A stretch of DNA of 10,523 bases. It comes from a bacterium. GTDB lineage: Bacteria; 4484-113; JALSIF01. A program made the position numbers and the translations under genes. Positions 317 through 10,523 of the stretch are shown here, one piece after another. Positions within the stretch are counted from its first letter, which is position 1. Each line of letters begins with the position of its first letter. The notes below the pieces were generated by a model. It ran no database searches. It saw only the letters and a program-made list of their open reading frames with translations, and had not been told where the DNA came from. Where the stretch lies: NCBI GenBank assembly GCA_026981635.1, contig JALSIF010000281.1, forward strand, positions 1-10,523, in the 5' to 3' direction.

Positions 317-367
317 CTCAATGGCGTGCGGGGGATGGCCGATTAACTTCGTATGGAGCGGAGAGAG

Positions 368-439
368 AGCCGGTGGTCGGATTCGAACCGACGACCTGCT
401 GATTACGAATCAGCTGCTCTACCACTGAGCTACACCGGC
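368..439 (-). tRNA. tRNA-Thr (anticodon CGU)
   Basis: Read on the minus strand, the sequence folds as a 72-nt cloverleaf. The acceptor stem is GCCGGTG (439-433) with CACCGGC (375-369). The D arm is GCTC/GAGC with a 7-base loop. The anticodon arm is GCTGA/TCAGC with loop TTCGTAA, giving anticodon CGT. The variable loop is AGGTC, the T arm GTCGG/CCGAC has loop TTCGAAT, and the discriminator base is T. CCA is not encoded: the bases after the discriminator are CTCTCT. This differs from the two other tRNA genes of the window. A clear promoter lies 20 bases upstream, and no obvious terminator follows within 100 bases on this strand. Confidence 0.97.
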
Positions 440-458
440 TCAGGTGCGAGGGGTCTAG

Positions 459-486
459 ATTCTATTTACCCCCGAGGCTGCGTCAA
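459..486 (-). promoter_or_regulatory. Sigma70-type promoter of tRNA-Thr
   Basis: On the minus strand TTGACG (486-481) is followed by a 16-base spacer and then TAGAAT (464-459), one base from the TATAAT consensus. The predicted transcription start lies near 452, about 12 bases before the mature 5' end of tRNA-Thr at 439. The -10 box and the bases after it (TAGAATCTAGA) recur exactly at the promoter of the tRNA-Ile/tRNA-Val pair, with the same 16-base spacer. The promoter lies within the presumed 5' coding end of the oppositely oriented exported-protein gene. Confidence 0.82.
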
Positions 487-1375
487 GTGGCTAGGCTGGC
501 TCATACTAGTGGCCGCTTTCGCCCTTGCCTTTCCCCATCCGGCCCAGGCGGACGACGCCCAAGGCAGTGGGGGCAGATATCCTCCCCTGGTGGTGGAGGT
601 TGAGCCGGCGGGTCTTTTTACCTCCGGGCTGGCAGGCGCGCTGGAGGAGGCGCTGGTCTTCTGGCTTTCCCGCGACCGGGTCTTTCCGGCAGTCTATCGG
701 GCAGGTGGTGACTTGCCAGCGGAGCACCTCACCCTCCGGGTTTCGGTGGAGGGCTACCGGGTGGGCAGGTCGGAGGGGATGCTTCCCCAGCTCTCGTGGG
801 ATGGCCTTCTGAAGCTTGAGCCCCATGTGGCCGAGGTGAGCCTCACCTACCGGATTGAGGACGGGCAGGGCAGACTCGTGGAACAGGGAAACGTGCGGGG
901 CAAGGAGAGCAGGCGGGGAGAGGTGGGGGAGTTTGACCATCCTGCCGAGCTTGCCCAGGCAAGCCTGCTTGCGGGCGGGTTTGCCGAAAGCCGCCTGGGG
1001 CGGGCCCTGCGCAAGGCGGCGGCCCAGGTGGTGCTGGCCCTCTACCAGAGCTTTCCACTCCCCGAGCGCCGGGTGGTGGAGATCCTGGCCGATGGCAGGG
1101 TGGTGGTTGATGCGGGGGAGCGGGTTGGTGTCTGGCAGGGAGATAACCTCTACCTGGTTCTCTATCAGCCGGTTGAGCTTTCTCCCGGCCGGGTGGAGAT
1201 GATTCCTCTGCGCCCCATTGCCCGGCTGGTGGTGAGGCAGGTTAAGCGGGACTACTCCATTGCGGTGGTCAAGTGGAGGGAGCGGAGGTATCTTCCCCGC
1301 GACATTCTCATGCGGGAGGTGAGGGTGGAGTTTAAGGACGACCCCATCCTTCGCCGCTACCGGCGGATGCTCTAG
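464..1375 (+). CDS. Exported CsgG/FlgT-like protein
   Basis: Product of about 303 residues with a signal peptide: basic residues (R4, K8), a hydrophobic core (W-L-I-L-V-A-A-F-A-L-A) and an A-Q-A cleavage site before D30. The middle looks like the CsgG family: a strand pair (V-A-E-V-S-L-T-Y-R-I-E-D-G-Q-G), then G-G-F-A-E-S-R-L-G-R-A-L-R-K-A and a helix (A-A-A-Q-V-V-L-A-L). This resembles the F-x-x-S-x-L-G-x-A segment near the end of that domain. After it, V-x-I-L-A-D-G-R-V-V-V-D-A-G-E-R-V-G-V-W-x-G-D resembles the C-terminal domain of flagellar assembly protein FlgT. A periplasmic or cell-envelope role is inferred. The frame is open back to an ATG at 353, but that start would place the tRNA-Thr gene inside the coding sequence. 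Past the tRNA the only in-frame starts are a rare ATT at 464 (GAGGGG at 448-453, 10 bases upstream) and GTG at 509, which would lose the basic end of the signal peptide. I prefer 464, with low certainty. Confidence 0.72.
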   Translation: MYPRGCVKWLGWLILVAAFALAFPHPAQADDAQGSGGRYPPLVVEVEPAGLFTSGLAGALEEALVFWLSRDRVFPAVYRAGGDLPAEHLTLRVSVEGYRVGRSEGMLPQLSWDGLLKLEPHVAEVSLTYRIEDGQGRLVEQGNVRGKESRRGEVGEFDHPAELAQASLLAGGFAESRLGRALRKAAAQVVLALYQSFPLPERRVVEILADGRVVVDAGERVGVWQGDNLYLVLYQPVELSPGRVEMIPLRPIARLVVRQVKRDYSIAVVKWRERRYLPRDILMREVRVEFKDDPILRRYRRML

Positions 1376-1471: not shown

Positions 1472-4066
1472 ATGATGGAGCACGAGGCGGAAAAAACGCG
1501 CATCATCTCCAAGGCTGAGGAGGCGGAGAAGACCGTCATCGGCCCCGACCGCCCCTACACCAAGCTGATTGCCAAGCCGGAAGGTGAGGCGACCATCATC
1601 GCCGAGCGTCCCCTGGGGGCGGAGGAGACGATAATTGGGGAGCCGGTCCAGGTCTCCCTGGGGGACCTTAGGCCCTACCTCTCCCTGGAATGTTTGGCCT
1701 ACAACCACTTTGCCTTGGCCGGCCAGCCCACCCAGAACTACCTGCTGGCTAACCTGAGCGCCGGCTACGAGGGAGGAACGAAGCTCGGCCGGCCGCCAGT
1801 GGCGCTGGTTTTGGTGCTGGACAAGAGCGGCTCCATGGAGGGGCGGCCGTGGGAGCACCTGATGATGGCGGTGCGCTACATCGCCTCCCAACTTACCCCG
1901 GCGGACCTTCTGGGCATCGTGGTGTTTGACGAGTATGTGGAGACCCTGCTTGAGCCCCAGCCGATGCTGGACGGGGAGGAGCCGGTGAGGATCATGGCCA
2001 AGGTCACCCCCCGTGGCACCACCAACCTCCACGCCGGCCTGGTGAGGGGGGTGGGGCTACTCAAAGATGCCAAGGCCCAAGGTGCGGTCAAGCGGATCCT
2101 GCTTTTAACCGACGGGGATGTGAACGAGGGGGTGACCGAGTACTCCCAGATCGTGATGGAGGCGCGCATCGCCCGCACCTACCAGATCGGGGTGAGTACC
2201 CTGGGGCTGGGGATTGAGTACAACGAGGAGCTGCTTACCGGCATCGCCAAGCACGGGGCGGGCAACTACCACTACATTGAGACCCCGGAGGACCTGGCCG
2301 AGGCCTTCAGCCAGGAGATGGAGAGCCTGTTTAAGGTGGTGGCCCAGGCGGCTAGCCTGACCCTGAAGCTAGGTAGGGGGGTGCGCTTTGACCGGGTCTA
2401 CGGGTTTGCCCACGAGCAGGTGGGCGACCGGGTGGAGATCGCCCTGCCCGACCTTGCGGCGGGCGAGAGCCTGCCGGTGCTTGCCAGGCTGGTGCTTGAG
2501 GGTGGGGAGCCGGGCGAGGAGACCTCGGTGGAAGTGGACCTTGCCTTCCGCTATGCGGGAAGCGATGAGGTGAGGCACCTCAGGGAGGTGGTCACCTACA
2601 CCTACACCGACGACCGCCAGAAGCTCCTGGAAGGGGTCAACCGGGCGGTGGACCGCATCATGCGGGAGAAGGATGTGGTGGAGGAGATCGCCCAGGCCAC
2701 CCAGATGATGGAGCGCGACCCCGCCTCCGCCACCCGCATCCTGGCCAAGGCCCAGGCCGAGCTGGCCAGGCGGGGCAGGGCAAGCGACGCCACCTTGATT
2801 GCCGCCGGGGTGGAGAAGGCGGAGCGGGGGGCGGTGGCCGATGCCACCAAGCTTATTTCCCAGAGCCTGTTTGCCCTGGAGCAGGGGAGGACCACGCCCC
2901 TGGGGGAGCTTGACTTGGCCAGCGAGGCGGAGGAGGCGGTAAGGCGGGCGACCGCCCCGGCAGAATTTGCCGGGGAGGAGCCGGGAGAGAAAACTATGGA
3001 AGAGAAGCATGGCCTAGTGGGCGAGGTACCGGAGGCCCGCCAGGCGGGCGGGGAGGCTGGTGAGGCGGGGAAGAAAGGCCCGGTTGCCCGGCTGGTTGAG
3101 GTGGGAGGCGGGCTTAGCTTTACCCTCTACGCCGATTCCCACTACCGCTTGGGCCGGAAGGTGGGTGAACTCATCATTCCGGAAGACATCTATGTCAGCC
3201 GATTGCATGGGGAGTTTGAGGTAAGCGGCGATGGCGTTCGTTACCGCGACCTGGGCAGCTCCAATGGAAGCGTGCTCAACGGTGAGCGGCTTCCCGCCGA
3301 GCACTGGGTGGAGCTCAATGACGGAGACACCCTCACCGTGGGACAGACCAGCCTTAGGCTGGAGATGATCGTCCCCCTGCTTCCACTTGGGGAAGGGAAG
3401 CAGGAGGCTCAGGCGGAAGAGAAGCCGGTGGTGGAGGTGGCCGAGGAAGAGGAGAAGACCGAGGAAGGGGAAGTTTCCCCCACTGAGCGGCCGGTTCCCA
3501 CCGGTGGTGAGCAGGTGGGGGAGTCGGGGGACCTTGAGGTGATGGCGGCCGCTGCCGGGGTGGGTCCGGAGGTGGGGGAGATGGCCCCGGAGGAGGAGCT
3601 GACTACCCCTACCTACCTCCTGGTCAGAGTGGAGGATGGCAGGAGCTGGCCCATAGAGCCGGGAGAGACGGTCTTTGGCCGGGGCGGCTCGGGGTGCGAT
3701 CAGGTAATTGACGGCGACGAGTACATCAGCCGGCGGCATTTTGCCATCTGCCTGGAGGCCGACGGGACCCTCTCCATCACCGACCTGGACTCCACCAACG
3801 GGACCCTGGTGGACGGCAAGGAGCTTGAGCCCCGAGTGAGCTATCCCCTGGCGCCGGGAGTGGAGATCAAGGTGGGCAAGACCACCCTTACCATCAAGGT
3901 CCCCGAGGAGCTGGTGGTGGAGGGGGAGGAGGCCGGCGAGGCCCCGCCCCAGGGAGAGGGAGAGGGAAAGGTTGAGCCTTCCTCCCCCCCGGAGGAGCTG
4001 GGTAGCTGGGAGAGTGAAGGAGGAGCTCCTGCCCCTCCCCCCCAAGAGGGGGAGGAGCAGGGCTGA
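1472..4066 (+). CDS. vWA protein with two FHA domains
   Basis: An 864-residue cytosolic-type protein with no signal peptide or membrane segment. Residues 1-60 carry five T-x-I/L motifs (T9, T21, T30, T41, T53). A von Willebrand A domain spans about 108-290 with a complete MIDAS metal site: D117-K-S-G-S121, T183/T184 in R-G-T-T-N, and D214 in L-L-T-D-G-D. A beta-rich region (290-380) and a helical region (385-475) follow. FHA domain 1 (about 548-635) shows R-L-G-R, S-R-L-H-G and S-S-N-G-S. FHA domain 2 (about 715-810) shows V-F-G-R-G, S-R-R-H-F and S-T-N-G-T. These are the pThr-binding residues known from FHA domains. The linkers and the C-terminus are Glu/Pro-rich and probably disordered. The ATG at 1472 has AGGG five bases upstream; ATG 1475 is an alternative. 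The protein is probably a scaffold that reads threonine phosphorylation, and the phosphatase encoded 24 bases downstream is its likely partner. Confidence 0.95.
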   Translation: MMEHEAEKTRIISKAEEAEKTVIGPDRPYTKLIAKPEGEATIIAERPLGAEETIIGEPVQVSLGDLRPYLSLECLAYNHFALAGQPTQNYLLANLSAGYEGGTKLGRPPVALVLVLDKSGSMEGRPWEHLMMAVRYIASQLTPADLLGIVVFDEYVETLLEPQPMLDGEEPVRIMAKVTPRGTTNLHAGLVRGVGLLKDAKAQGAVKRILLLTDGDVNEGVTEYSQIVMEARIARTYQIGVSTLGLGIEYNEELLTGIAKHGAGNYHYIETPEDLAEAFSQEMESLFKVVAQAASLTLKLGRGVRFDRVYGFAHEQVGDRVEIALPDLAAGESLPVLARLVLEGGEPGEETSVEVDLAFRYAGSDEVRHLREVVTYTYTDDRQKLLEGVNRAVDRIMREKDVVEEIAQATQMMERDPASATRILAKAQAELARRGRASDATLIAAGVEKAERGAVADATKLISQSLFALEQGRTTPLGELDLASEAEEAVRRATAPAEFAGEEPGEKTMEEKHGLVGEVPEARQAGGEAGEAGKKGPVARLVEVGGGLSFTLYADSHYRLGRKVGELIIPEDIYVSRLHGEFEVSGDGVRYRDLGSSNGSVLNGERLPAEHWVELNDGDTLTVGQTSLRLEMIVPLLPLGEGKQEAQAEEKPVVEVAEEEEKTEEGEVSPTERPVPTGGEQVGESGDLEVMAAAAGVGPEVGEMAPEEELTTPTYLLVRVEDGRSWPIEPGETVFGRGGSGCDQVIDGDEYISRRHFAICLEADGTLSITDLDSTNGTLVDGKELEPRVSYPLAPGVEIKVGKTTLTIKVPEELVVEGEEAGEAPPQGEGEGKVEPSSPPEELGSWESEGGAPAPPPQEGEEQG
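4028..4061 (+). other. Long GC hairpin just before the vWA/FHA stop codon
   Basis: Bases 4028-4041 (CCTGCCCCTCCCCC) pair with 4048-4061 (GGGGGAGGAGCAGG), giving 13 of 14 pairs with one C/A mismatch and a 6-base loop. The structure ends two bases before the stop codon of the vWA/FHA gene (TGA 4064-4066) and 29 bases before the ATG of the phosphatase gene. No T tract follows, so it is not a standard terminator. It could slow ribosomes, protect mRNA ends or set the level of phosphatase translation. It may also simply result from Pro- and Glu-rich codons. Confidence 0.45.
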
Positions 4067-4090
4067 TAGAGGGTCTAAGATTTCCCCTTG

Positions 4091-5584
4091 ATGATGGGGC
4101 CAACTCAACCTGAACCGGCAGACCCCACGGGCGTCATCCTCTACCGGACCAGCCTGGGGAGTACCTCGCTTGCCACCTCGGGCAATGGAGCCAGTGTCTG
4201 CCGCTGGGAGGCTGGCGAGGGGCTGCCCACCGAGGCGGTCAGCCGGCTGACCAACCTGCTGCTGCTTCACGAGGACCATCCCCTGATCCGGGTGAGGGAC
4301 TTTGTCAGCCACCCGGAGGCCAGGCTGATGGTGGACCTGGAGCCGGTGGAGTTTACCCTCGCCCAGGTCCTTTCCGGCGAGGTGTGGGCCCGGCCGGTGG
4401 CGGTGCTTGGCGCCCTTTGCGAGCTTGACCGGCAGATGGTGGAGCTTTCTGGCGAGGCAGGCGGCCTGCCCCCGCTTCCCGCCCCCGAGCAGGTCGGTTT
4501 TGAGCTGGCCGGAGAAGGGCTTGCCGCCCAGGATCTGGTCCCCCGCCTGCTGGCCCCGGAGCTCCTGGTGGCGGGGGATGAACTGGGCTCTGAGGAAGGG
4601 GCCGGAGAGCAGGCCGGGGAGGGGCTCTTGGTGCGCCTCTCCCGGTGGCTGAGGGAGGTGCCGGTTTGCTTTGGCGAGGGCCACCGCGAGCTGGCCGACT
4701 TTCTGGCCGAGGCGGGAGGGGAGGTGAACCGGGCCGGCTCACTCCATCCCCTCCTGGCGGAGGTGGGGATTAACCTTGGGCTTAGTGCCGAGACTTCGGT
4801 GGGGCTGGTGAGGGAACAGAACGAGGACCGCTACTTCACCTCCCTTACCGTGGTGGGGGAGCCGGAGAGGCTGGTGGGAGTGATCCTGGTGTGTGACGGG
4901 ATGGGCGGCCACGCCGCCGGGGAGGTGGCAGCCGACCTGGCCAGCCGCTACATGGGAGCGATGCTCACCACCCACGCTCTCACCTTTGATGCCCGCCACG
5001 ACCACCGGGTTGAGATCCAGGGCTATGTGGACTGGGTGGCGGAGAAGCTCTCCTCCATGGCGGCGGAAAGGCCCGAACTTGCCGGCATGGGGACCACCCT
5101 AAGCGGGGGGCTGGTGGTGGAGCGGGAGGGCTTTGGGGCGGACGGCCTGGTGGTTAACCTGGGTGACAGCCGCACCTACCTTTACTCCGCCGGCAGGCTG
5201 ATACGCCTCACCCGCGACCACGACGCGGCCAGCGAGATGGTGGCCCGGGGAGAGATGAGCGAGGAGGAGGCCCGCTCCAGTGGCTACTCCAGCATGCTCA
5301 CCCGCTGCCTATGTGCCGAGCCCTCCAACCGGGAGGTGGATGTCTTCTCCCTCACCCTGGGGGGAGGAGAGGCGCTCATTGCGGCAAGCGACGGACTAAC
5401 CGACCTGGTGGAGGATGGGGTCATCTTGCGGATCCTCGCTGAGGCCCACTCCCCCGACCAGGCGGCTGAGCTCCTGGTGGAGGAGGCCAACCGCCGGGGT
5501 GGCTTTGACAACTCAACCGTGCTGGTGCTCACCCTCTCCTGGCTGGTGCCAGAGTTTGCTGAGGGAGAAGAGGAAGAGGGGTGA
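4091..5584 (+). CDS. PP2C-family Ser/Thr protein phosphatase with kinase-like N-terminal region
   Basis: About 497 residues, soluble. The last 265 residues form a complete PP2C (PPM) phosphatase, which removes phosphate from Ser/Thr using two metal ions. Motifs in order (about residue): N-E-D-R (245), V-C-D-G-M-G-G-H (268-274), G-T-T (336), L-G-D-S-R (358), S-D-G-L (434) and F-D-N-S-T (473), which include the metal-binding Asp residues. The family core is about 240-260 residues, so the first 220 are extra. They show H-P-L-I-R-V-R-D-F, then L-M-V-D-L-E-P, T-L-A-Q-V-L, V-G-F-E-L-A and L-L-A-P-E-L-L in the order of kinase-lobe landmarks, but without the catalytic Lys, H-R-D or D-F-G. I infer a degenerate kinase-like domain. 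TTG at 4088 and ATGs at 4091 and 4094 are tandem starts; none has a strong ribosome-binding site, so translation may depend on the upstream vWA/FHA gene. The stop overlaps the next start as GTGA. Confidence 0.95.
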   Translation: MMGPTQPEPADPTGVILYRTSLGSTSLATSGNGASVCRWEAGEGLPTEAVSRLTNLLLLHEDHPLIRVRDFVSHPEARLMVDLEPVEFTLAQVLSGEVWARPVAVLGALCELDRQMVELSGEAGGLPPLPAPEQVGFELAGEGLAAQDLVPRLLAPELLVAGDELGSEEGAGEQAGEGLLVRLSRWLREVPVCFGEGHRELADFLAEAGGEVNRAGSLHPLLAEVGINLGLSAETSVGLVREQNEDRYFTSLTVVGEPERLVGVILVCDGMGGHAAGEVAADLASRYMGAMLTTHALTFDARHDHRVEIQGYVDWVAEKLSSMAAERPELAGMGTTLSGGLVVEREGFGADGLVVNLGDSRTYLYSAGRLIRLTRDHDAASEMVARGEMSEEEARSSGYSSMLTRCLCAEPSNREVDVFSLTLGGGEALIAASDGLTDLVEDGVILRILAEAHSPDQAAELLVEEANRRGGFDNSTVLVLTLSWLVPEFAEGEEEEG

Positions 5585-7593
5585 GGCTTCGCATCGGGAT
5601 CGATGTGGGCGGCACCTTCACCCACGCCGTCGCCCTGGACGAGGAGCTGAACCTGGTGGCCAGCGCCCGCACCCTGACCACCCACCGCCATCCCCTCGGG
5701 GTTGCCCAGGGGATCAGGGAGGTGCTGGATAGTCTCCTGCAGGAGATCCCTTCCCCGGGGAGGGTGGAAAGCATCGCCCACTCCACCACCCAGGCGACCA
5801 ACGCCCTGCTGGAAGGGAGGTTTGCCCCGGTCCGTCTGCTGGTGGTGGCACCGGGAGTGATGGGCCTGCTGGCCAGGGTGCAGCTTGGTAGTGGGGAGCT
5901 TTCGGTGGGGGAGGCAAGGCTTCTCTACTCCTTCCACCTCTTCCCCAACTTTTCGGAACTTGAGCGGCTGGGCGACATCTCTGACCCCGAGACCCTCACC
6001 GTGCTCCTTGTCCCCTTCCCCGATGAGCAAGGGCTGGTGGAGCGGGAGTTTGCTGCCCGCCATACGGGGATGATGGCGGCAAGTGGGGTCGCACCCCGCC
6101 TGGGGCTCAAGCACCGGGCCCTTACTGCCCTGGCCAATGCCGCCCTGGTCCCCATCATGGAGGGGACGGCCAGAGAGACTGAGCGGGTGTGCAGGGAGCT
6201 TATGCCCGGTGTTTCCCTGGCGGTGCTCAGGAGCGACGGTGGGGTGATGGGGGCGCGTGAGCTAAGCCAAAGTCCGGTCCAGGCCATCTATTCGGGACCG
6301 GCGGCCGGGGCCAGTGCGGCGGTGGGCTACCTGGGGCTGGGGGACGGCATCTTCATTGAGGTGGGGGGAACCTCCACCGACATCACCCTGATTGAGTGCG
6401 GCCAGGTGCCCAGAAGCCAGATCACCATCGGCGGCACCCGCCTGCTGGTGGAGGGACTAGACCTGAGGACGGTGGGGATTGGCGGTGGGAGCCTGCTCTC
6501 TGAGGAGGGCAGGCTCGGCCCCCACTCCGCCCACCAGGCAGGGCTAAGCTACTTCGCCTTCGGCCCCAAGGCCAGGCTTCCCCTCTCCGTCTCTACCCTG
6601 GAGCTTACTGAGCACCGCTACCTGGTCTTCACCGACGGGGCGGGGGAGCGGTTTGGCCTAACCCTCAGCGACATCTCCCTCTTTCTGGGGACGGCGGAGA
6701 AGGCCGGTGAGCCCGAGGGGGAGCGGATGGCTGCCATTGGCGAGGCGCTGGAGCTAGCCCAGCAGGTGGTGGGAAGGCCAGCCCACGAGCTTGCCTCCCG
6801 CTCCCTTGAGGGGGCAGTAAAGAAGCTTGCCGGTGAGATCAGAGGGCTGGTTCAGGACTACCAGCTGGAGGACACCTCCTCGCGCCTGCTCATCGGCGGG
6901 GGTGGGGGAGCCCCATACCTCATCTCGCCGCTGGCCAGCGAACTGGGCATGGGATTTAGGCTGGCCCCCCACACCGAGGTGATCAGCGCCATCGGGGCGG
7001 CCCTGGCGGTCCGCTCAGTGAGCCTGGTCAGGGAGGCGGCCGACCCCACCCCGGAGCTCTATCGGGAGCTCTCCCGAGAGGCGGCAAGGAGGCTTGGGGC
7101 AGAAAGCGAGGAAGCGGTGCGGCTGTCCTTCGCCTACTCTCCCTCAGCCCGCACCCTCACCCTCCAGGCCCACCTTCCCCTCCACCTGGGCAGGGGGGAA
7201 CTTTCCCTGCAGGAGCTCACCCGCCTAGCCGCCCAGTTCTTCCCCGCTGGCCGAGCGGAGCTGGTGGAGAGGGCGGGAGGGGTGGTGGTGTTTGGGGAGG
7301 GGGGAAGGAAGGGGAGGAAGCGACTGGTGGTGCTTGACCCAACGGGGAGACTTCTGGCCCGCCTCTACCGCTACCGGGTGGCCCCCGTCAGGGAGGTGGG
7401 GGAGGTGCTTGGGCTTTTGGACGAGAACCGACGCTTTGGGGACAGTGGCGGACGCATCCCGCTGGCTCTGGTGGCCTGGCGGGGATGTCTGATTGACCTT
7501 CGCAGTCTGCCTGAGCTTGAGCAGGTCCGCTCCGCGCTGGAGCTGCAAATGAAGGGAGAGGGAGAGGGGCTCCTTTTCCTGCGGCCGGTCTAG
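5581..7593 (+). CDS. Hydantoinase/oxoprolinase subunit A-like protein (HyuA family)
   Basis: A 670-residue protein, close to the usual length of HyuA, the ATP-dependent ASKHA-fold subunit of hydantoinase, 5-oxoprolinase and related enzymes. The Hydant_A N-terminal domain starts with G-I-D-V-G-G-T-F-T (residues 6-14) and S-T-T-Q-A-T-N-A-L-L-E (68-78). The second phosphate motif is E-V-G-G-T-S-T-D (260-267), followed by V-G-I-G-G-G-S (298-304). The adenosine-type motif is L-I-G-G-G-G-G-A-P (437-445). Residue 15 is His where most members have Asp (F-T-D), and 260 is Glu where D-x-G-G-T-S-T-D is usual. Residues 480-670 form a C-terminal region I do not recognise. GTG start, AGGA at 5571-5574, overlapping the phosphatase stop by four bases, so translation is probably coupled. 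No HyuB gene is present. Catalysis of hydantoin or oxoproline hydrolysis is doubtful; a signalling-related role is inferred from context. Confidence 0.92.
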   Translation: MRLRIGIDVGGTFTHAVALDEELNLVASARTLTTHRHPLGVAQGIREVLDSLLQEIPSPGRVESIAHSTTQATNALLEGRFAPVRLLVVAPGVMGLLARVQLGSGELSVGEARLLYSFHLFPNFSELERLGDISDPETLTVLLVPFPDEQGLVEREFAARHTGMMAASGVAPRLGLKHRALTALANAALVPIMEGTARETERVCRELMPGVSLAVLRSDGGVMGARELSQSPVQAIYSGPAAGASAAVGYLGLGDGIFIEVGGTSTDITLIECGQVPRSQITIGGTRLLVEGLDLRTVGIGGGSLLSEEGRLGPHSAHQAGLSYFAFGPKARLPLSVSTLELTEHRYLVFTDGAGERFGLTLSDISLFLGTAEKAGEPEGERMAAIGEALELAQQVVGRPAHELASRSLEGAVKKLAGEIRGLVQDYQLEDTSSRLLIGGGGGAPYLISPLASELGMGFRLAPHTEVISAIGAALAVRSVSLVREAADPTPELYRELSREAARRLGAESEEAVRLSFAYSPSARTLTLQAHLPLHLGRGELSLQELTRLAAQFFPAGRAELVERAGGVVVFGEGGRKGRKRLVVLDPTGRLLARLYRYRVAPVREVGEVLGLLDENRRFGDSGGRIPLALVAWRGCLIDLRSLPELEQVRSALELQMKGEGEGLLFLRPV

Positions 7594-7596
7594 GGG

Positions 7597-7672
7597 TGGT
7601 GGGCGGTAGAGGACTCGAACCTCTGACCTTCTGGGTGTAAACCAGACGCTCTGCCAACTGAGCTAACCGCCC
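7597..7672 (-). tRNA. tRNA-Val (anticodon UAC)
   Basis: On the minus strand: acceptor GGGCGGT (7672-7666) with ACCGCCC (7607-7601), D arm GCTC/GAGC, anticodon arm TCTGG/CCAGA with loop TTTACAC (anticodon TAC), variable loop AGGTC, and T arm AGAGG/CCTCT with loop TTCGAGT. The discriminator is A and CCA is encoded at 7599-7597. It follows tRNA-Ile2 by 11 bases and is surely transcribed with it. Its 3' end lies three bases from the stop codon of the convergent hyuA-like gene. No terminator is visible, so transcripts of the two strands must overlap. Confidence 0.97.
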
Positions 7673-7683
7673 AGCTTTGACCT

Positions 7684-7759
<76 letters not shown>

Positions 7760-7767
7760 CTATCTAG

Positions 7768-7795
7768 ATTCTAACTACCTCCAAAGCCAGCTCAA
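7768..7795 (-). promoter_or_regulatory. Sigma70-type promoter of the tRNA-Ile2/tRNA-Val pair
   Basis: On the minus strand TTGAGC (7795-7790) is followed by a 16-base spacer and TAGAAT (7773-7768). The mature tRNA 5' end at 7759 is only 8 bases beyond the -10 box, so the primary transcript would have almost no leader. It shares the -10 and following bases TAGAATCTAGA, and the spacer length, with the tRNA-Thr promoter. It lies just after the sdpI-family stop codon (7802-7800), so read-through from that gene may add to tRNA transcription. Confidence 0.78.
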
Positions 7796-7799
7796 CTCC

Positions 7800-8513
7800 T
7801 TATGGATGGGCGGTCGGGTCCTGGGCGTGGAGGCGCCGGTAGAGGATGAGGCTGTAGACCACCAGGATGAGGGAGACCAGGAGGACCCCTGCCACTATCA
7901 CCACCAGGGCGGCGGGGGAGGAGATGAAGATGAGGGGAACCGCCAGGGCGCCAATCAGGATAAACAGCCAGCCTCCCAGGCGGTGGGTGGCCTCCCACAC
8001 CCGGTCGTCCTCCAGCGTCCAGGGGGTCCTGATGCCGGCGAACCAGTTGGGTTTGAGCCGGGGAAGGATGAGCCCCAGAACGATAAACAGGAGGGCCATG
8101 GCCAGGGAGATGGAGACGCCGATGTCAATTGGCTGACCCATCATGGCCATTCCGGTGAGCACCTGTATGAGGAGTAAAAAACCGAGCAGGAACCAGACTA
8201 GACCGAGATAGACCTGGCGGAACTTGGCGTAGTTTGCCCGCCTTGGGTCAAGCAGTGGGATGAAGAGGAAGAGGAGCCAGAGGAAGGTGAGGATGATGGG
8301 GACGATCATCGTCCCCTCAAACTTGGAGCCGTAGCGGTCAACCTCACCCTGCAGGTTCCAGTGGACCGGCACCCGCTCAGGCAGGATCTGGTAGAGCCAG
8401 AGGGCGATGGCCCAGCTAGATATCACCAGCACACCGGAGGCAAACAGACTGCGGAGGGGGATGGCGGGGGTGTCCTGCTTCCCTCTCCCTGTTTTTGGCT
8501 CCAGGTTGGCCAT
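7800..8513 (-). CDS. SdpI/DUF1648-family integral membrane protein
   Basis: 237 residues with six predicted membrane segments (about 22-44, 68-88, 101-125, 131-150, 180-199, 201-224). After the first segment comes L-P-E-R-V-P-V-H-W-N-L-Q-G-E-V-D-R-Y-G (44-62), the hallmark of DUF1648. The loop after segment four reads P-N-W-F-A-G-I-R-T-P-W-T-L-E-D-D-R-V-W-E-A-T-H-R-L-G (155-180), the signature of the SdpI family. In Bacillus subtilis SdpI gives immunity to the SdpC toxin and takes part in sensing it. Most family members elsewhere have no such partner, and no toxin gene is seen here. The ATG at 8513 gives a normal family length; its upstream region lacks a good ribosome-binding site (the nearest is AGGAG, about 22 bases away). 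The gene diverges from the LptF/G-family gene across a 62-base gap and leads directly into the tRNA promoter. Confidence 0.92.
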   Translation of the reverse strand: MANLEPKTGRGKQDTPAIPLRSLFASGVLVISSWAIALWLYQILPERVPVHWNLQGEVDRYGSKFEGTMIVPIILTFLWLLFLFIPLLDPRRANYAKFRQVYLGLVWFLLGFLLLIQVLTGMAMMGQPIDIGVSISLAMALLFIVLGLILPRLKPNWFAGIRTPWTLEDDRVWEATHRLGGWLFILIGALAVPLIFISSPAALVVIVAGVLLVSLILVVYSLILYRRLHAQDPTAHP

Positions 8514-8564
8514 GGCTCAACTAGGTGGGGATTGCTCCTAGATATTAGACCCTTAGGGCGGGAC

Positions 8565-8570
8565 AGGGGA
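8565..8570 (+). promoter_or_regulatory. Ribosome-binding site deciding the TTG start of the permease gene
   Basis: AGGGGA lies five bases before TTG 8576. The next in-frame start, GTG 8606, is preceded by a C-rich tract without any such site. This favours the TTG start. Confidence 0.55.
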
Positions 8571-8575
8571 TTCCT

Positions 8576-9715
8576 TTGGCCGTACCGGGGCTAAACTTTC
8601 CCCCGGTGCGCATCCTGAGTACCCTTGATCGGATGCTCCTCAGGGAGGCTGTCCCGCCCCTGGGCCTGGGGCTGGTGGCCTTCACCCTGCTAATGGTGAG
8701 CGCCATCCTCATCCGACCCACCCTGGACTTCATGGTGGAGTACAACGTCCCCCTCTCCCTGGCGGGGAAGCTATTTCTGATGGGGCTTCCCCAGATCTTT
8801 GCCTACACCATCCCCATGTCCATGCTGCTTGGCACGCTGATTGCCTTTGGCCGGCTCAGTTCCGACCACGAGCTGGTCGCCCTCCGGGCGGCGGGCTACA
8901 GCCTTGCCCGGATCGTCGCGCCGGTTTTTGCCCTGGGGCTGGTGATGTCGGTTACCGCCTTTCTCATCAACGAGAAGCTGGCGGTGCACCTTGCCCGTCA
9001 GGTCAAGCAGATCAAGAACCAGGTGATTGAGCGAAAGACCGGCGCCATCCGGCAGGAGGAGGTGCTGATCCTTTTCAAGAACCCCACCGACCGGACCCGC
9101 TGGGTGCTCATGGCTGACCGGCTGGAGGGGGACAGACTCTATGGGGTGCGCTTTTTCTTCTTTGGTAAGCGGCTCACCGACGACTGGTGGCTGAGGGCGC
9201 CGGAGGCGGAGTGGACCGGCAACGACTGGAAGTTCTACCAGGTGATGATCTCCCAGCAGCAGGCCGACGGCTCCACCCGCACCATCAAGCACGAGACCAT
9301 GGAGGTAAAGGAGCTAAGGCTCTCCTCTCGCCAGCTGAGGGTTGAGACCCTAAGCTCGGAGGAGCGGGACTTCTGGGAGCAGCTTGACTTTATACGGCGC
9401 CGTGCCCTGAGCCTGCCCAAGAAGCAGGTGCTAAAGGAGCTAACCGAGCTCTATATGAAGGTGACGGTCCCCTTCTCGGCAGCCTTCTTTGTGCTCATTG
9501 CGGTTCCGCTGGGGATAATCCCTGAGCGGACCACCACCACCACCGGCTTTGGCATCGCTCTCTTTCTGGTCTTTGGCTACTACGTGGTGCTTATAGCCTC
9601 CATCCGCCTGGCCCAGGCGGGGGTGATTGCGCCCCTGGCGGCCAGCCTCATCCCCAATACGGTGGTGGCCCTGGTGGGGCTTGGGCTGATCTGGTGGAAG
9701 AACCGCCGGGGCTAG
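8576..9715 (+). CDS. LptF/LptG (YjgP/YjgQ)-family permease
   Basis: 379 residues, the usual length for the family (about 360-390). Three membrane segments near the N-terminus (about 31-49, 66-90, 109-131) and three near the C-terminus (about 295-316, 323-345, 355-374) flank a beta-rich soluble domain (about 155-265). The family hallmark F-G-R-L-S-S-D-H-E-L-V-A-L-R-A-A-G follows segment two (91-107). In Gram-negative bacteria LptF and LptG form the membrane part of the LptB2FG transporter, which extracts lipopolysaccharide from the inner membrane. F and G cannot be told apart here, and no second permease, LptB, LptA or LptC is in the window. Members also occur in some Clostridia as single genes of unknown substrate. 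The TTG start is chosen for its AGGGGA site and because it keeps the cytoplasmic N-terminal helix complete. Confidence 0.93.
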   Translation: MAVPGLNFPPVRILSTLDRMLLREAVPPLGLGLVAFTLLMVSAILIRPTLDFMVEYNVPLSLAGKLFLMGLPQIFAYTIPMSMLLGTLIAFGRLSSDHELVALRAAGYSLARIVAPVFALGLVMSVTAFLINEKLAVHLARQVKQIKNQVIERKTGAIRQEEVLILFKNPTDRTRWVLMADRLEGDRLYGVRFFFFGKRLTDDWWLRAPEAEWTGNDWKFYQVMISQQQADGSTRTIKHETMEVKELRLSSRQLRVETLSSEERDFWEQLDFIRRRALSLPKKQVLKELTELYMKVTVPFSAAFFVLIAVPLGIIPERTTTTTGFGIALFLVFGYYVVLIASIRLAQAGVIAPLAASLIPNTVVALVGLGLIWWKNRRG

Positions 9716-9753
9716 CCGGTATCTTCCCGCCCTCCCACACCGGCCGTCCGGCT

Positions 9754-9763
9754 AAGGAGGTGA
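9754..9763 (+). promoter_or_regulatory. Perfect Shine-Dalgarno sequence without a credible gene
   Basis: AAGGAGGTGA on the plus strand matches the 16S rRNA anti-Shine-Dalgarno over its full length. It is the strongest such site in the window. The only start at a proper distance is TTG 9770, opening a 56-codon proline-rich frame that ends at 9940 and runs antisense to the 3' part of the minus-strand gene at 9783-10523. The site may be a remnant of a lost gene downstream of the permease, or serve an unrecognised small peptide. Confidence 0.4.
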
Positions 9764-9782
9764 GGTAAGTTGCCAGCCTGCC

Positions 9783-10523
9783 CTAGGCCACCTGCTCCAC
9801 CTGCTCAACCAGCCTCTCTACCACCCTACGGCGGAGATCTGCTAGCTCCTCATAAGAAACAGTGCGTCTCTCATCGGGTTCCTGCTCCCTCGCTGCTTCA
9901 GCCAGCTCGCCGATGGACCGGTTCTCGCCGAGCCTGTTGATGAGTTCAACGGCCATCCCCCTAAGCTCCCGAAGCCTGCGGAGCATACCGGCAATGTGAG
10001 TGTGGGAGGATCTTGCCCACTGAGCCACCTCGGCGGCGACCCGGTTTTCTTCCGGCAGACCCAAAAGACTTGAAAACAGCCGCTCTGCCACCCCCTCTGC
10101 GCGGGCGAGCAGGTGGTCAGCCTGGCTGAACCTCTCTTCAATTTCTCTAAGGGTTATCTGGGCATAGGGGCGAAGGGGTTTGCGAGGGGGAAGAGGCGGC
10201 AGGGAGCGATGCGCAAGTTCAAGCAGACCGATCAGGTTGACGTAGAGGTCAACCGCTTCGTAGGGAAGGCTTATAGCAAGGGAAGTCGGGTGAGTTGGAG
10301 ACCTTCTCTCAAGGCGTATGATCCTTCGGCGAAGTTGCTCGGTGATTAGCAGAACCTCGTCCAGCTTGGCAATTCCGGTAATCCTGGGGAGTCGTTCATG
10401 GAGCCCATTTCCAAGCAATTCCAGGTACTTCCGGTCAATTTCTTCAGCGAGCTCCACTGCCTCACTGCTGGTGGCGTAGAGGTAGAGGGGCATCCCCTGC
10501 CAAACCACCACTTCGGCATAATC
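9783..10523 (-). CDS. Unrecognised helical protein, N-terminus outside the window
   Basis: The frame enters from the right edge without a stop (four more codons, D-Y-A-E, precede the first in-window GTG at 10511) and ends at TAG 9785-9783, giving 246 visible residues. I do not recognise the family. The sequence begins with short strands (V-V-V-W-Q-G-M-P-L-Y-L-Y) and is then almost wholly helical, charged and rich in Arg, Glu and Leu. The pattern is amphipathic, with possible coiled coils at about 165-200 and 220-246 of the visible part. No membrane segment, metal-binding cysteine cluster or nucleotide-binding motif is seen. Codon use is somewhat less GC-biased than in the neighbouring genes, especially around 10130-10350. 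It converges with the permease gene across a 67-base gap. The first visible valines are probably internal, so the true start is likely to lie outside. Confidence 0.72.
   Translation of the reverse strand, partial: DYAEVVVWQGMPLYLYATSSEAVELAEEIDRKYLELLGNGLHERLPRITGIAKLDEVLLITEQLRRRIIRLERRSPTHPTSLAISLPYEAVDLYVNLIGLLELAHRSLPPLPPRKPLRPYAQITLREIEERFSQADHLLARAEGVAERLFSSLLGLPEENRVAAEVAQWARSSHTHIAGMLRRLRELRGMAVELINRLGENRSIGELAEAAREQEPDERRTVSYEELADLRRRVVERLVEQVEQVA

What the first reader, a model, noticed from the sequence alone, without database searches (positions are those of the whole stretch)
1472..7593. Candidate phospho-signalling operon: vWA-FHA-FHA, PP2C and a HyuA-like ASKHA protein
Three genes in one direction, with a 24-base gap and then a four-base overlap, place a double-FHA vWA scaffold, a PP2C phosphatase and a hydantoinase-A-like ATPase-fold protein together. 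vWA plus PP2C plus a Ser/Thr kinase is known from the TerY-P triad, but here the kinase is missing or reduced to a degenerate domain, and a HyuA-like protein is added. I know of no described system with this composition. The pairing suggests that the HyuA-like protein is the effector, or a phospho-regulated partner, of the FHA/PP2C pair.
Basis: partly seen in the sequence, partly recalled or inferred. Interest (0 to 1): 0.65.

Follow-up and report, generated by a model that had tools for sequence, protein, structure and literature searches.

The report
Phospho-switch gene pair, unrelated enzyme downstream
Two neighbouring genes look like a bacterial phosphorylation switch similar to one known in archaea (a vWA protein carrying its own phosphothreonine readers, plus the phosphatase that would reset it), while the third gene is a separate, widespread metabolic-type enzyme that sits next to them only in this genome.

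Summary
The three genes, the 24-base gap and the 4-base overlap are real, and all signature motifs are intact. The neighbourhood, which is the heart of the claim, is not conserved. Relatives of all three proteins occur across the window's small phylum (10 genomes held), yet the HyuA-like gene is never beside vWA, FHA or PP2C there, nor in 34 loci from other phyla (47 loci, 503 called genes, no hit). Elsewhere that HyuA clade usually sits beside a membrane transporter, and this genome keeps that transporter on another contig. The vWA family's best match among solved structures is archaeal ArnB, whose phosphothreonines bind the FHA protein ArnA. The family also has a conserved tail with three invariant threonines in T-[IV]-[IV] repeats. 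Ser/Thr kinases exist elsewhere in the genome. Best reading: a fused ArnA/ArnB-like phospho-switch reset by PP2C, a new variant of a known kind. The 'degenerate kinase' in the PP2C protein could not be confirmed.

The parts
1472..4066 (+). vWA-FHA-FHA protein, 864 aa (ArnB-like vWA part fused to two FHA domains)
   Evidence: Pfam VWA and two FHA stretches; profile match to ArnB 8S05
1472..1645 (+). N-terminal tail with four T-[IVR]-I motifs (Thr 9, 21, 41, 53); Thr 21, 41 and 53 invariant in the family alignment
   Evidence: alignment A3; 4 motifs against 0.32 expected, none of 2000 shuffles reaches 4
1805..2308 (+). vWA domain with intact MIDAS DxSxS
   Evidence: Pfam residues 112-279; motif check
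3140..3364 (+). FHA domain 1
   Evidence: intact GR / SRLH / NG; two FHA stretches
3668..3877 (+). FHA domain 2
   Evidence: Pfam residues 733-802; intact GR / SRRH / NG
4091..5584 (+). PP2C phosphatase gene, 497 aa
   Evidence: Pfam PP2C and PP2C_2; all catalytic motifs; model matches tPphA and PstP with Z about 30
4094..4774 (+). N-terminal domain of the PP2C protein; found only within this phylum among 144 genomes searched; kinase-like origin not established
   Evidence: low-confidence model
5581..7593 (+). HyuA-like ASKHA protein, 670 aa, no HyuB partner found in the genome; judged not functionally part of the pair
   Evidence: Pfam; fold match to acetone carboxylase 5svc_B Z 34.4 over 488 residues; no HyuB in G000

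Best explanation
The first two genes encode a Hanks-type phospho-switch. A Ser/Thr kinase encoded elsewhere phosphorylates threonines of the vWA protein, most likely in its N-terminal T-[IV]-[IV] repeats. The FHA domains, here fused to the vWA protein itself, bind the phosphothreonines within the chain or between chains and so change its shape or assembly. The adjacent PP2C removes the phosphates and resets the switch. This is the logic of archaeal ArnA (FHA) / ArnB (vWA) / ArnC (kinase) / PP2A. The HyuA-like gene is a stand-alone metabolic-type ASKHA enzyme that happens to follow in this one lineage. Shown: domains, intact motifs, conserved threonines, ArnB similarity, recurrent vWA-FHA adjacency, kinases in the genome, non-conserved HyuA neighbourhood. 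Inferred: phosphorylation, FHA binding and dephosphorylation by this PP2C.
For: Domains and motifs. The vWA family profile matches ArnB (8S05 chain A) at E 2.4e-19 over vWA, beta-sandwich and helical part, the best PDB hit, and the ArnB paralog 5A8J at 2.4e-14 (8S05 is the ArnAB complex according to PMC12852372). In ArnA/ArnB, FHA binds phosphothreonines of ArnB, and dephosphorylation by PP2A dissociates the complex (PMC6509490; PMC7472852). Recurrent vWA-FHA adjacency: the separate vWA and FHA-FHA genes of family f3 (L071, L072) are one fused gene in the window; also L073/L183, L189, and L195 with PP2C-STK-vWA-FHA. Threonine tail. Kinases in trans. HyuA unlinked in all 47 loci.
Against: PP2C lies beside the vWA gene only in the window and in L195; in the rest of the phylum they are unlinked. 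vWA stands alone without FHA in families f2 and f4. In ArnB the mapped phosphosites are in the C-terminal helix bundle, not an N-terminal tail. Many bacteria carry vWA, FHA and PP2C genes in other roles. No phosphorylation data exist here.
Confidence: 0.6

Rival explanations
1. The three genes form one functional system: the HyuA-like ATPase-fold protein is the effector or phospho-regulated partner of the FHA/PP2C pair.
For: Four-base overlap with PP2C suggests translational coupling in this genome. In three Melainabacteria/cyanobacteria loci of the HyuA clade a large kinase gene lies two genes upstream of HyuA (L096, L101, L107).
Against: None of 47 HyuA-clade loci has PP2C, FHA or vWA. Relatives in all nine other genomes of the phylum are elsewhere. 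The clade's usual neighbour is a transporter (27 of 34 loci outside the phylum).
Confidence: 0.08
2. The vWA-FHA-FHA gene and the PP2C gene are also neighbours by chance; each belongs to the genome's general Ser/Thr phosphorylation network and they do not act on each other.
For: Within the phylum, PP2C is next to CorA or antiporter genes, not vWA.
Against: L195, in a different phylum, has PP2C-STK-vWA-FHA in a row; TerY-P triads pair vWA with PP2C (PMC11090510).
Confidence: 0.25
3. A reduced TerY-P triad (vWA + PP2C + kinase with zinc ribbon) whose kinase degenerated into the N-terminal domain of the PP2C protein.
For: Order of predicted secondary structure elements in the N-domain is loosely kinase-like.
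Against: No kinase similarity by Pfam, HMM or profile comparison; the N-domain is present in all ten genomes of the phylum, where the PP2C is not a vWA neighbour; no PADLOC hit.
Confidence: 0.07

Closest known systems
ArnA/ArnB/ArnC/PP2A archaellum regulatory module of Sulfolobus (PMC6509490, PMC7472852, PMC12852372)
   Same: vWA + beta-sandwich + helical protein with significant sequence similarity to ArnB, FHA domains as partner, Ser/Thr kinase and phosphatase
   Different: bacterial; vWA and FHA fused in one chain; two FHA domains and no zinc finger; conserved threonines in an N-terminal tail rather than the C-terminal helix bundle; phosphatase of PP2C type, encoded next door
TerY-P triad (definition in PMC11090510)
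   Same: vWA and PP2C genes adjacent; phospho-signalling theme
   Different: no kinase with zinc ribbon in the operon; FHA domains fused to the vWA; no match to PADLOC models
Mycobacterial FhaA/FhaB-PstP-PknA/B cluster (from general knowledge)
   Same: FHA proteins and a PP2C in one operon of a Hanks kinase network; PstP is among the closest PP2C structures
   Different: no vWA there; no rodA, pbpA or kinase genes here
HyuA-type subunits: acetone carboxylase, acetophenone carboxylase, caprolactamase, N-methylhydantoinase
   Same: residues 1-540 share the fold (Z 34.4 to 5svc_B) and ATP-binding motifs
   Different: no HyuB partner; relatives 27-38% identical form a stand-alone clade with GTFT-H/R in place of the usual GTFTD (comparison recalled); C-terminal region from about residue 545 not matched

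Membership tests
ArnA/ArnB phospho-module | vWA protein of ArnB architecture (vWA, beta-sandwich, helical domain) | tested here: met
   Family profile positions 105-430 align with ArnB 8S05 residues 41-339, E 2.4e-19
ArnA/ArnB phospho-module | FHA domain partner with phosphate-binding residues | tested here: met
   Two FHA domains, fused, residues intact
ArnA/ArnB phospho-module | zinc finger on the FHA protein | tested here: not met
   No zinc ribbon reported by Pfam in the window protein
ArnA/ArnB phospho-module | phosphorylation-dependent binding, reversed by phosphatase | not testable with these tools
   needs biochemistry
TerY-P triad | vWA and PP2C genes adjacent | tested here: met
TerY-P triad | Ser/Thr kinase fused to zinc ribbon in the same operon | tested here: not met
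   No kinase in the window; kinases lie on other contigs
HyuA/HyuB ATP-dependent hydrolase or carboxylase | HyuA domains and ASKHA motifs | tested here: met
HyuA/HyuB ATP-dependent hydrolase or carboxylase | HyuB subunit encoded nearby | tested here: not met
   No Hydantoinase_B in the 85% complete genome; the single HyuB in each of six relatives lies elsewhere than the ortholog of this HyuA
Pseudokinase-PP2C fusion | N-terminal domain of kinase fold | tested here: inconclusive
   No sequence signal; model of this part is low-confidence and structure hits were filled by the PP2C domain

The most novel reading that the evidence does not exclude
In this lineage the HyuA-like ATPase-fold enzyme was recruited into the operon and is switched by the vWA-FHA-FHA/PP2C pair, making it an ASKHA hydrolase-type effector of an FHA phospho-module, a combination for which no description was found here.
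Probability: 0.08. Interest if true: 0.6.

Novelty: new variant of a known kind. Interest (0 to 1): 0.35.

Why it matters
If right, the FHA-vWA-phosphatase switch worked out in archaeal motility control has bacterial relatives, including a natural fusion in which acceptor threonines and phosphothreonine readers sit on one chain. That gives a simple single-protein system in which to test how such switches assemble, and points to the conserved N-terminal T-[IV]-[IV] tail as the likely phosphorylation site. It also removes a misleading lead: the HyuA-like gene should not be read as part of a signalling operon.

Tried and rejected
Single-sequence scan of genome contigs with the HyuA protein found nothing; the alignment scan worked. 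Kinase origin of the PP2C N-domain: Pfam at E up to 5, an HMM of 20 kinase hits, and profile-profile alignment gave no signal; the profile comparison with the larger kinase set printed no result. Structure search of the PP2C model was filled by PP2C chains, so it does not test the N-domain. PADLOC: no hits for the trio. Longest-ORF gene calling gave false antisense genes in these GC-rich genomes and was replaced by codon-usage scoring; three of the 34 outside loci (L109, L111, L117) still had the HyuA gene called on the wrong strand, and in L190 and L196 the vWA gene was not called. Promoter and terminator scans gave nothing useful.

Full report
What is there. The window is a complete 10,523-base contig (C281) of a 1.75 Mb genome assembly estimated 85% complete. 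Three genes on the + strand match the description: vWA-FHA-FHA at 1472-4066, PP2C at 4091-5584 and a HyuA-like protein at 5581-7593. The gap and the overlap are as stated. All signature residues are intact. Upstream is a probable exported protein (353-1375; its N-terminus overlaps an antisense tRNA-Thr at 367-439, so the true start is likely near 485). Downstream are two convergent tRNA genes.

Is the neighbourhood conserved? The phylum has ten genomes in the collection. HyuA relatives occur in all ten, PP2C relatives in all ten if the contig-end fragment in G002 is counted, and clear vWA relatives in eight of the other nine, one of them a contig-end fragment; G009, the least complete, has only a weak vWA match. 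After codon-usage gene calling of the neighbourhoods, no other genome of the phylum has any two of vWA, PP2C and HyuA together. In 13 HyuA loci from the genome search plus 34 from a scan of named genomes (47 loci, 503 genes), HMMs for PP2C, FHA and vWA found nothing.

What the HyuA-like protein is. It belongs to a stand-alone clade found in Bacillota, Melainabacteria and cyanobacteria, Bacteroidota, KSB1, Planctomycetes and others. In 27 of the 34 outside loci a membrane-protein gene (mostly 430-550 aa) lies beside it or within two genes of it; one copy has a weak match to citrate:proton symporters. Other recurrent neighbours are a roughly 190 aa protein with an HExxH-like motif and an FAD oxidoreductase. 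The transporter has a homolog in all ten genomes of the window's phylum but not beside HyuA; in G000 it is on contig C101. G000 has no HyuB. The AlphaFold2 model (mean pLDDT 87.8) matches acetone carboxylase (Z 34.4, rmsd 3.7, 488 residues), acetophenone carboxylase, N-methylhydantoinase and caprolactamase over about residues 1-540. A metabolic ATP-dependent enzyme, perhaps acting on an imported compound, is the likeliest role (inference); the substrate is unknown.

What the vWA-FHA-FHA protein is. Its vWA part is a family of about 470 aa proteins. The family profile finds ArnB (PDB 8S05, chain A) as best PDB hit, E 2.4e-19, extending past the vWA domain, and the ArnB paralog vWA2/ArnE (5A8J) at 2.4e-14; that 8S05 is the ArnAB complex comes from PMC12852372. 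ArnB is phosphorylated on threonines and bound by the FHA protein ArnA (PMC6509490), and PP2A dephosphorylation dissociates the complex (PMC7472852). In family f3 of the window's phylum the vWA gene is followed by a separate FHA-FHA gene (L071, L072); in the window the two are one gene. FHA genes also adjoin the vWA gene in L073 and L183 (one other family), L189 and L195, and L195 reads PP2C-STK-vWA-FHA. This recurrence, with a fusion, is good evidence that vWA and FHA work together, and fair evidence that PP2C does too.

A conserved threonine tail. The first 58 residues contain EKTRII, EKTVIG, EATIIA and EETIIG. Relatives have the same kind of repeats (DATIV, GDATVV). In the nine-sequence alignment the only invariant residues before position 101 are three threonines, all in these motifs. 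The window has 4 such motifs against 0.32 expected, with none of 2000 shuffles reaching 4. These are plausible phosphothreonine acceptor sites; that they are phosphorylated is inference.

Kinase. None in the window, but the genome has a canonical Hanks kinase (C8, with HRDIKPSN and DFG, cut by the contig end) and a 1020 aa tandem kinase-like/TPR protein (C35). The suggestion that the PP2C protein's N-terminal 225 residues are a degenerate kinase found no sequence support, and the structure model is of low confidence over much of that part. The domain was found only in this phylum among 144 genomes searched.

Verdict. A phospho-switch pair (vWA-FHA-FHA and PP2C) of ArnA/ArnB-like logic, new as a fused bacterial variant, followed by a HyuA-like gene whose link is probably chance. 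The mechanism is inferred from family knowledge and conservation, not shown. A lineage-specific recruitment of HyuA cannot be excluded because no second genome of the window's own family is held.

Noticed in passing
L195 (G068:C37), 4501-10517: PP2C (with N-terminal zinc ribbon), Ser/Thr kinase with zinc ribbon, ArnB-like vWA, and zinc-ribbon FHA protein in one row: a TerY-P-like triad plus FHA, and a fuller version of the window's pair.
   Followed up: partly
L093-L125: The stand-alone HyuA clade is regularly next to an uncharacterised membrane transporter, often with a roughly 190 aa HExxH-like protein and an FAD oxidoreductase: an undescribed-looking metabolic locus across many phyla.
   Followed up: partly
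L096, L101, L107: In three Melainabacteria/cyanobacteria loci a 730-976 aa kinase gene lies directly upstream of the transporter-HyuA pair.
   Followed up: no
L149:837-3899 (G000:C35): 1020 aa protein with two kinase-like domains (both lacking canonical HRD/DFG) and C-terminal TPR repeats.
   Followed up: no
L042:6720-9632 (G001:C55): HyuA relative of 970 aa, larger than the 670-720 aa relatives.
   Followed up: no
window 8576-9715: LptF/LptG family permease gene, suggesting an outer membrane with lipopolysaccharide export, so the host is probably a diderm rather than a typical Firmicute.
   Followed up: no
window 353-1375: Probable exported protein just upstream of the trio with a non-significant FlgT_C match (E 0.047); the ORF's first start overlaps an antisense tRNA-Thr gene.
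   Followed up: no
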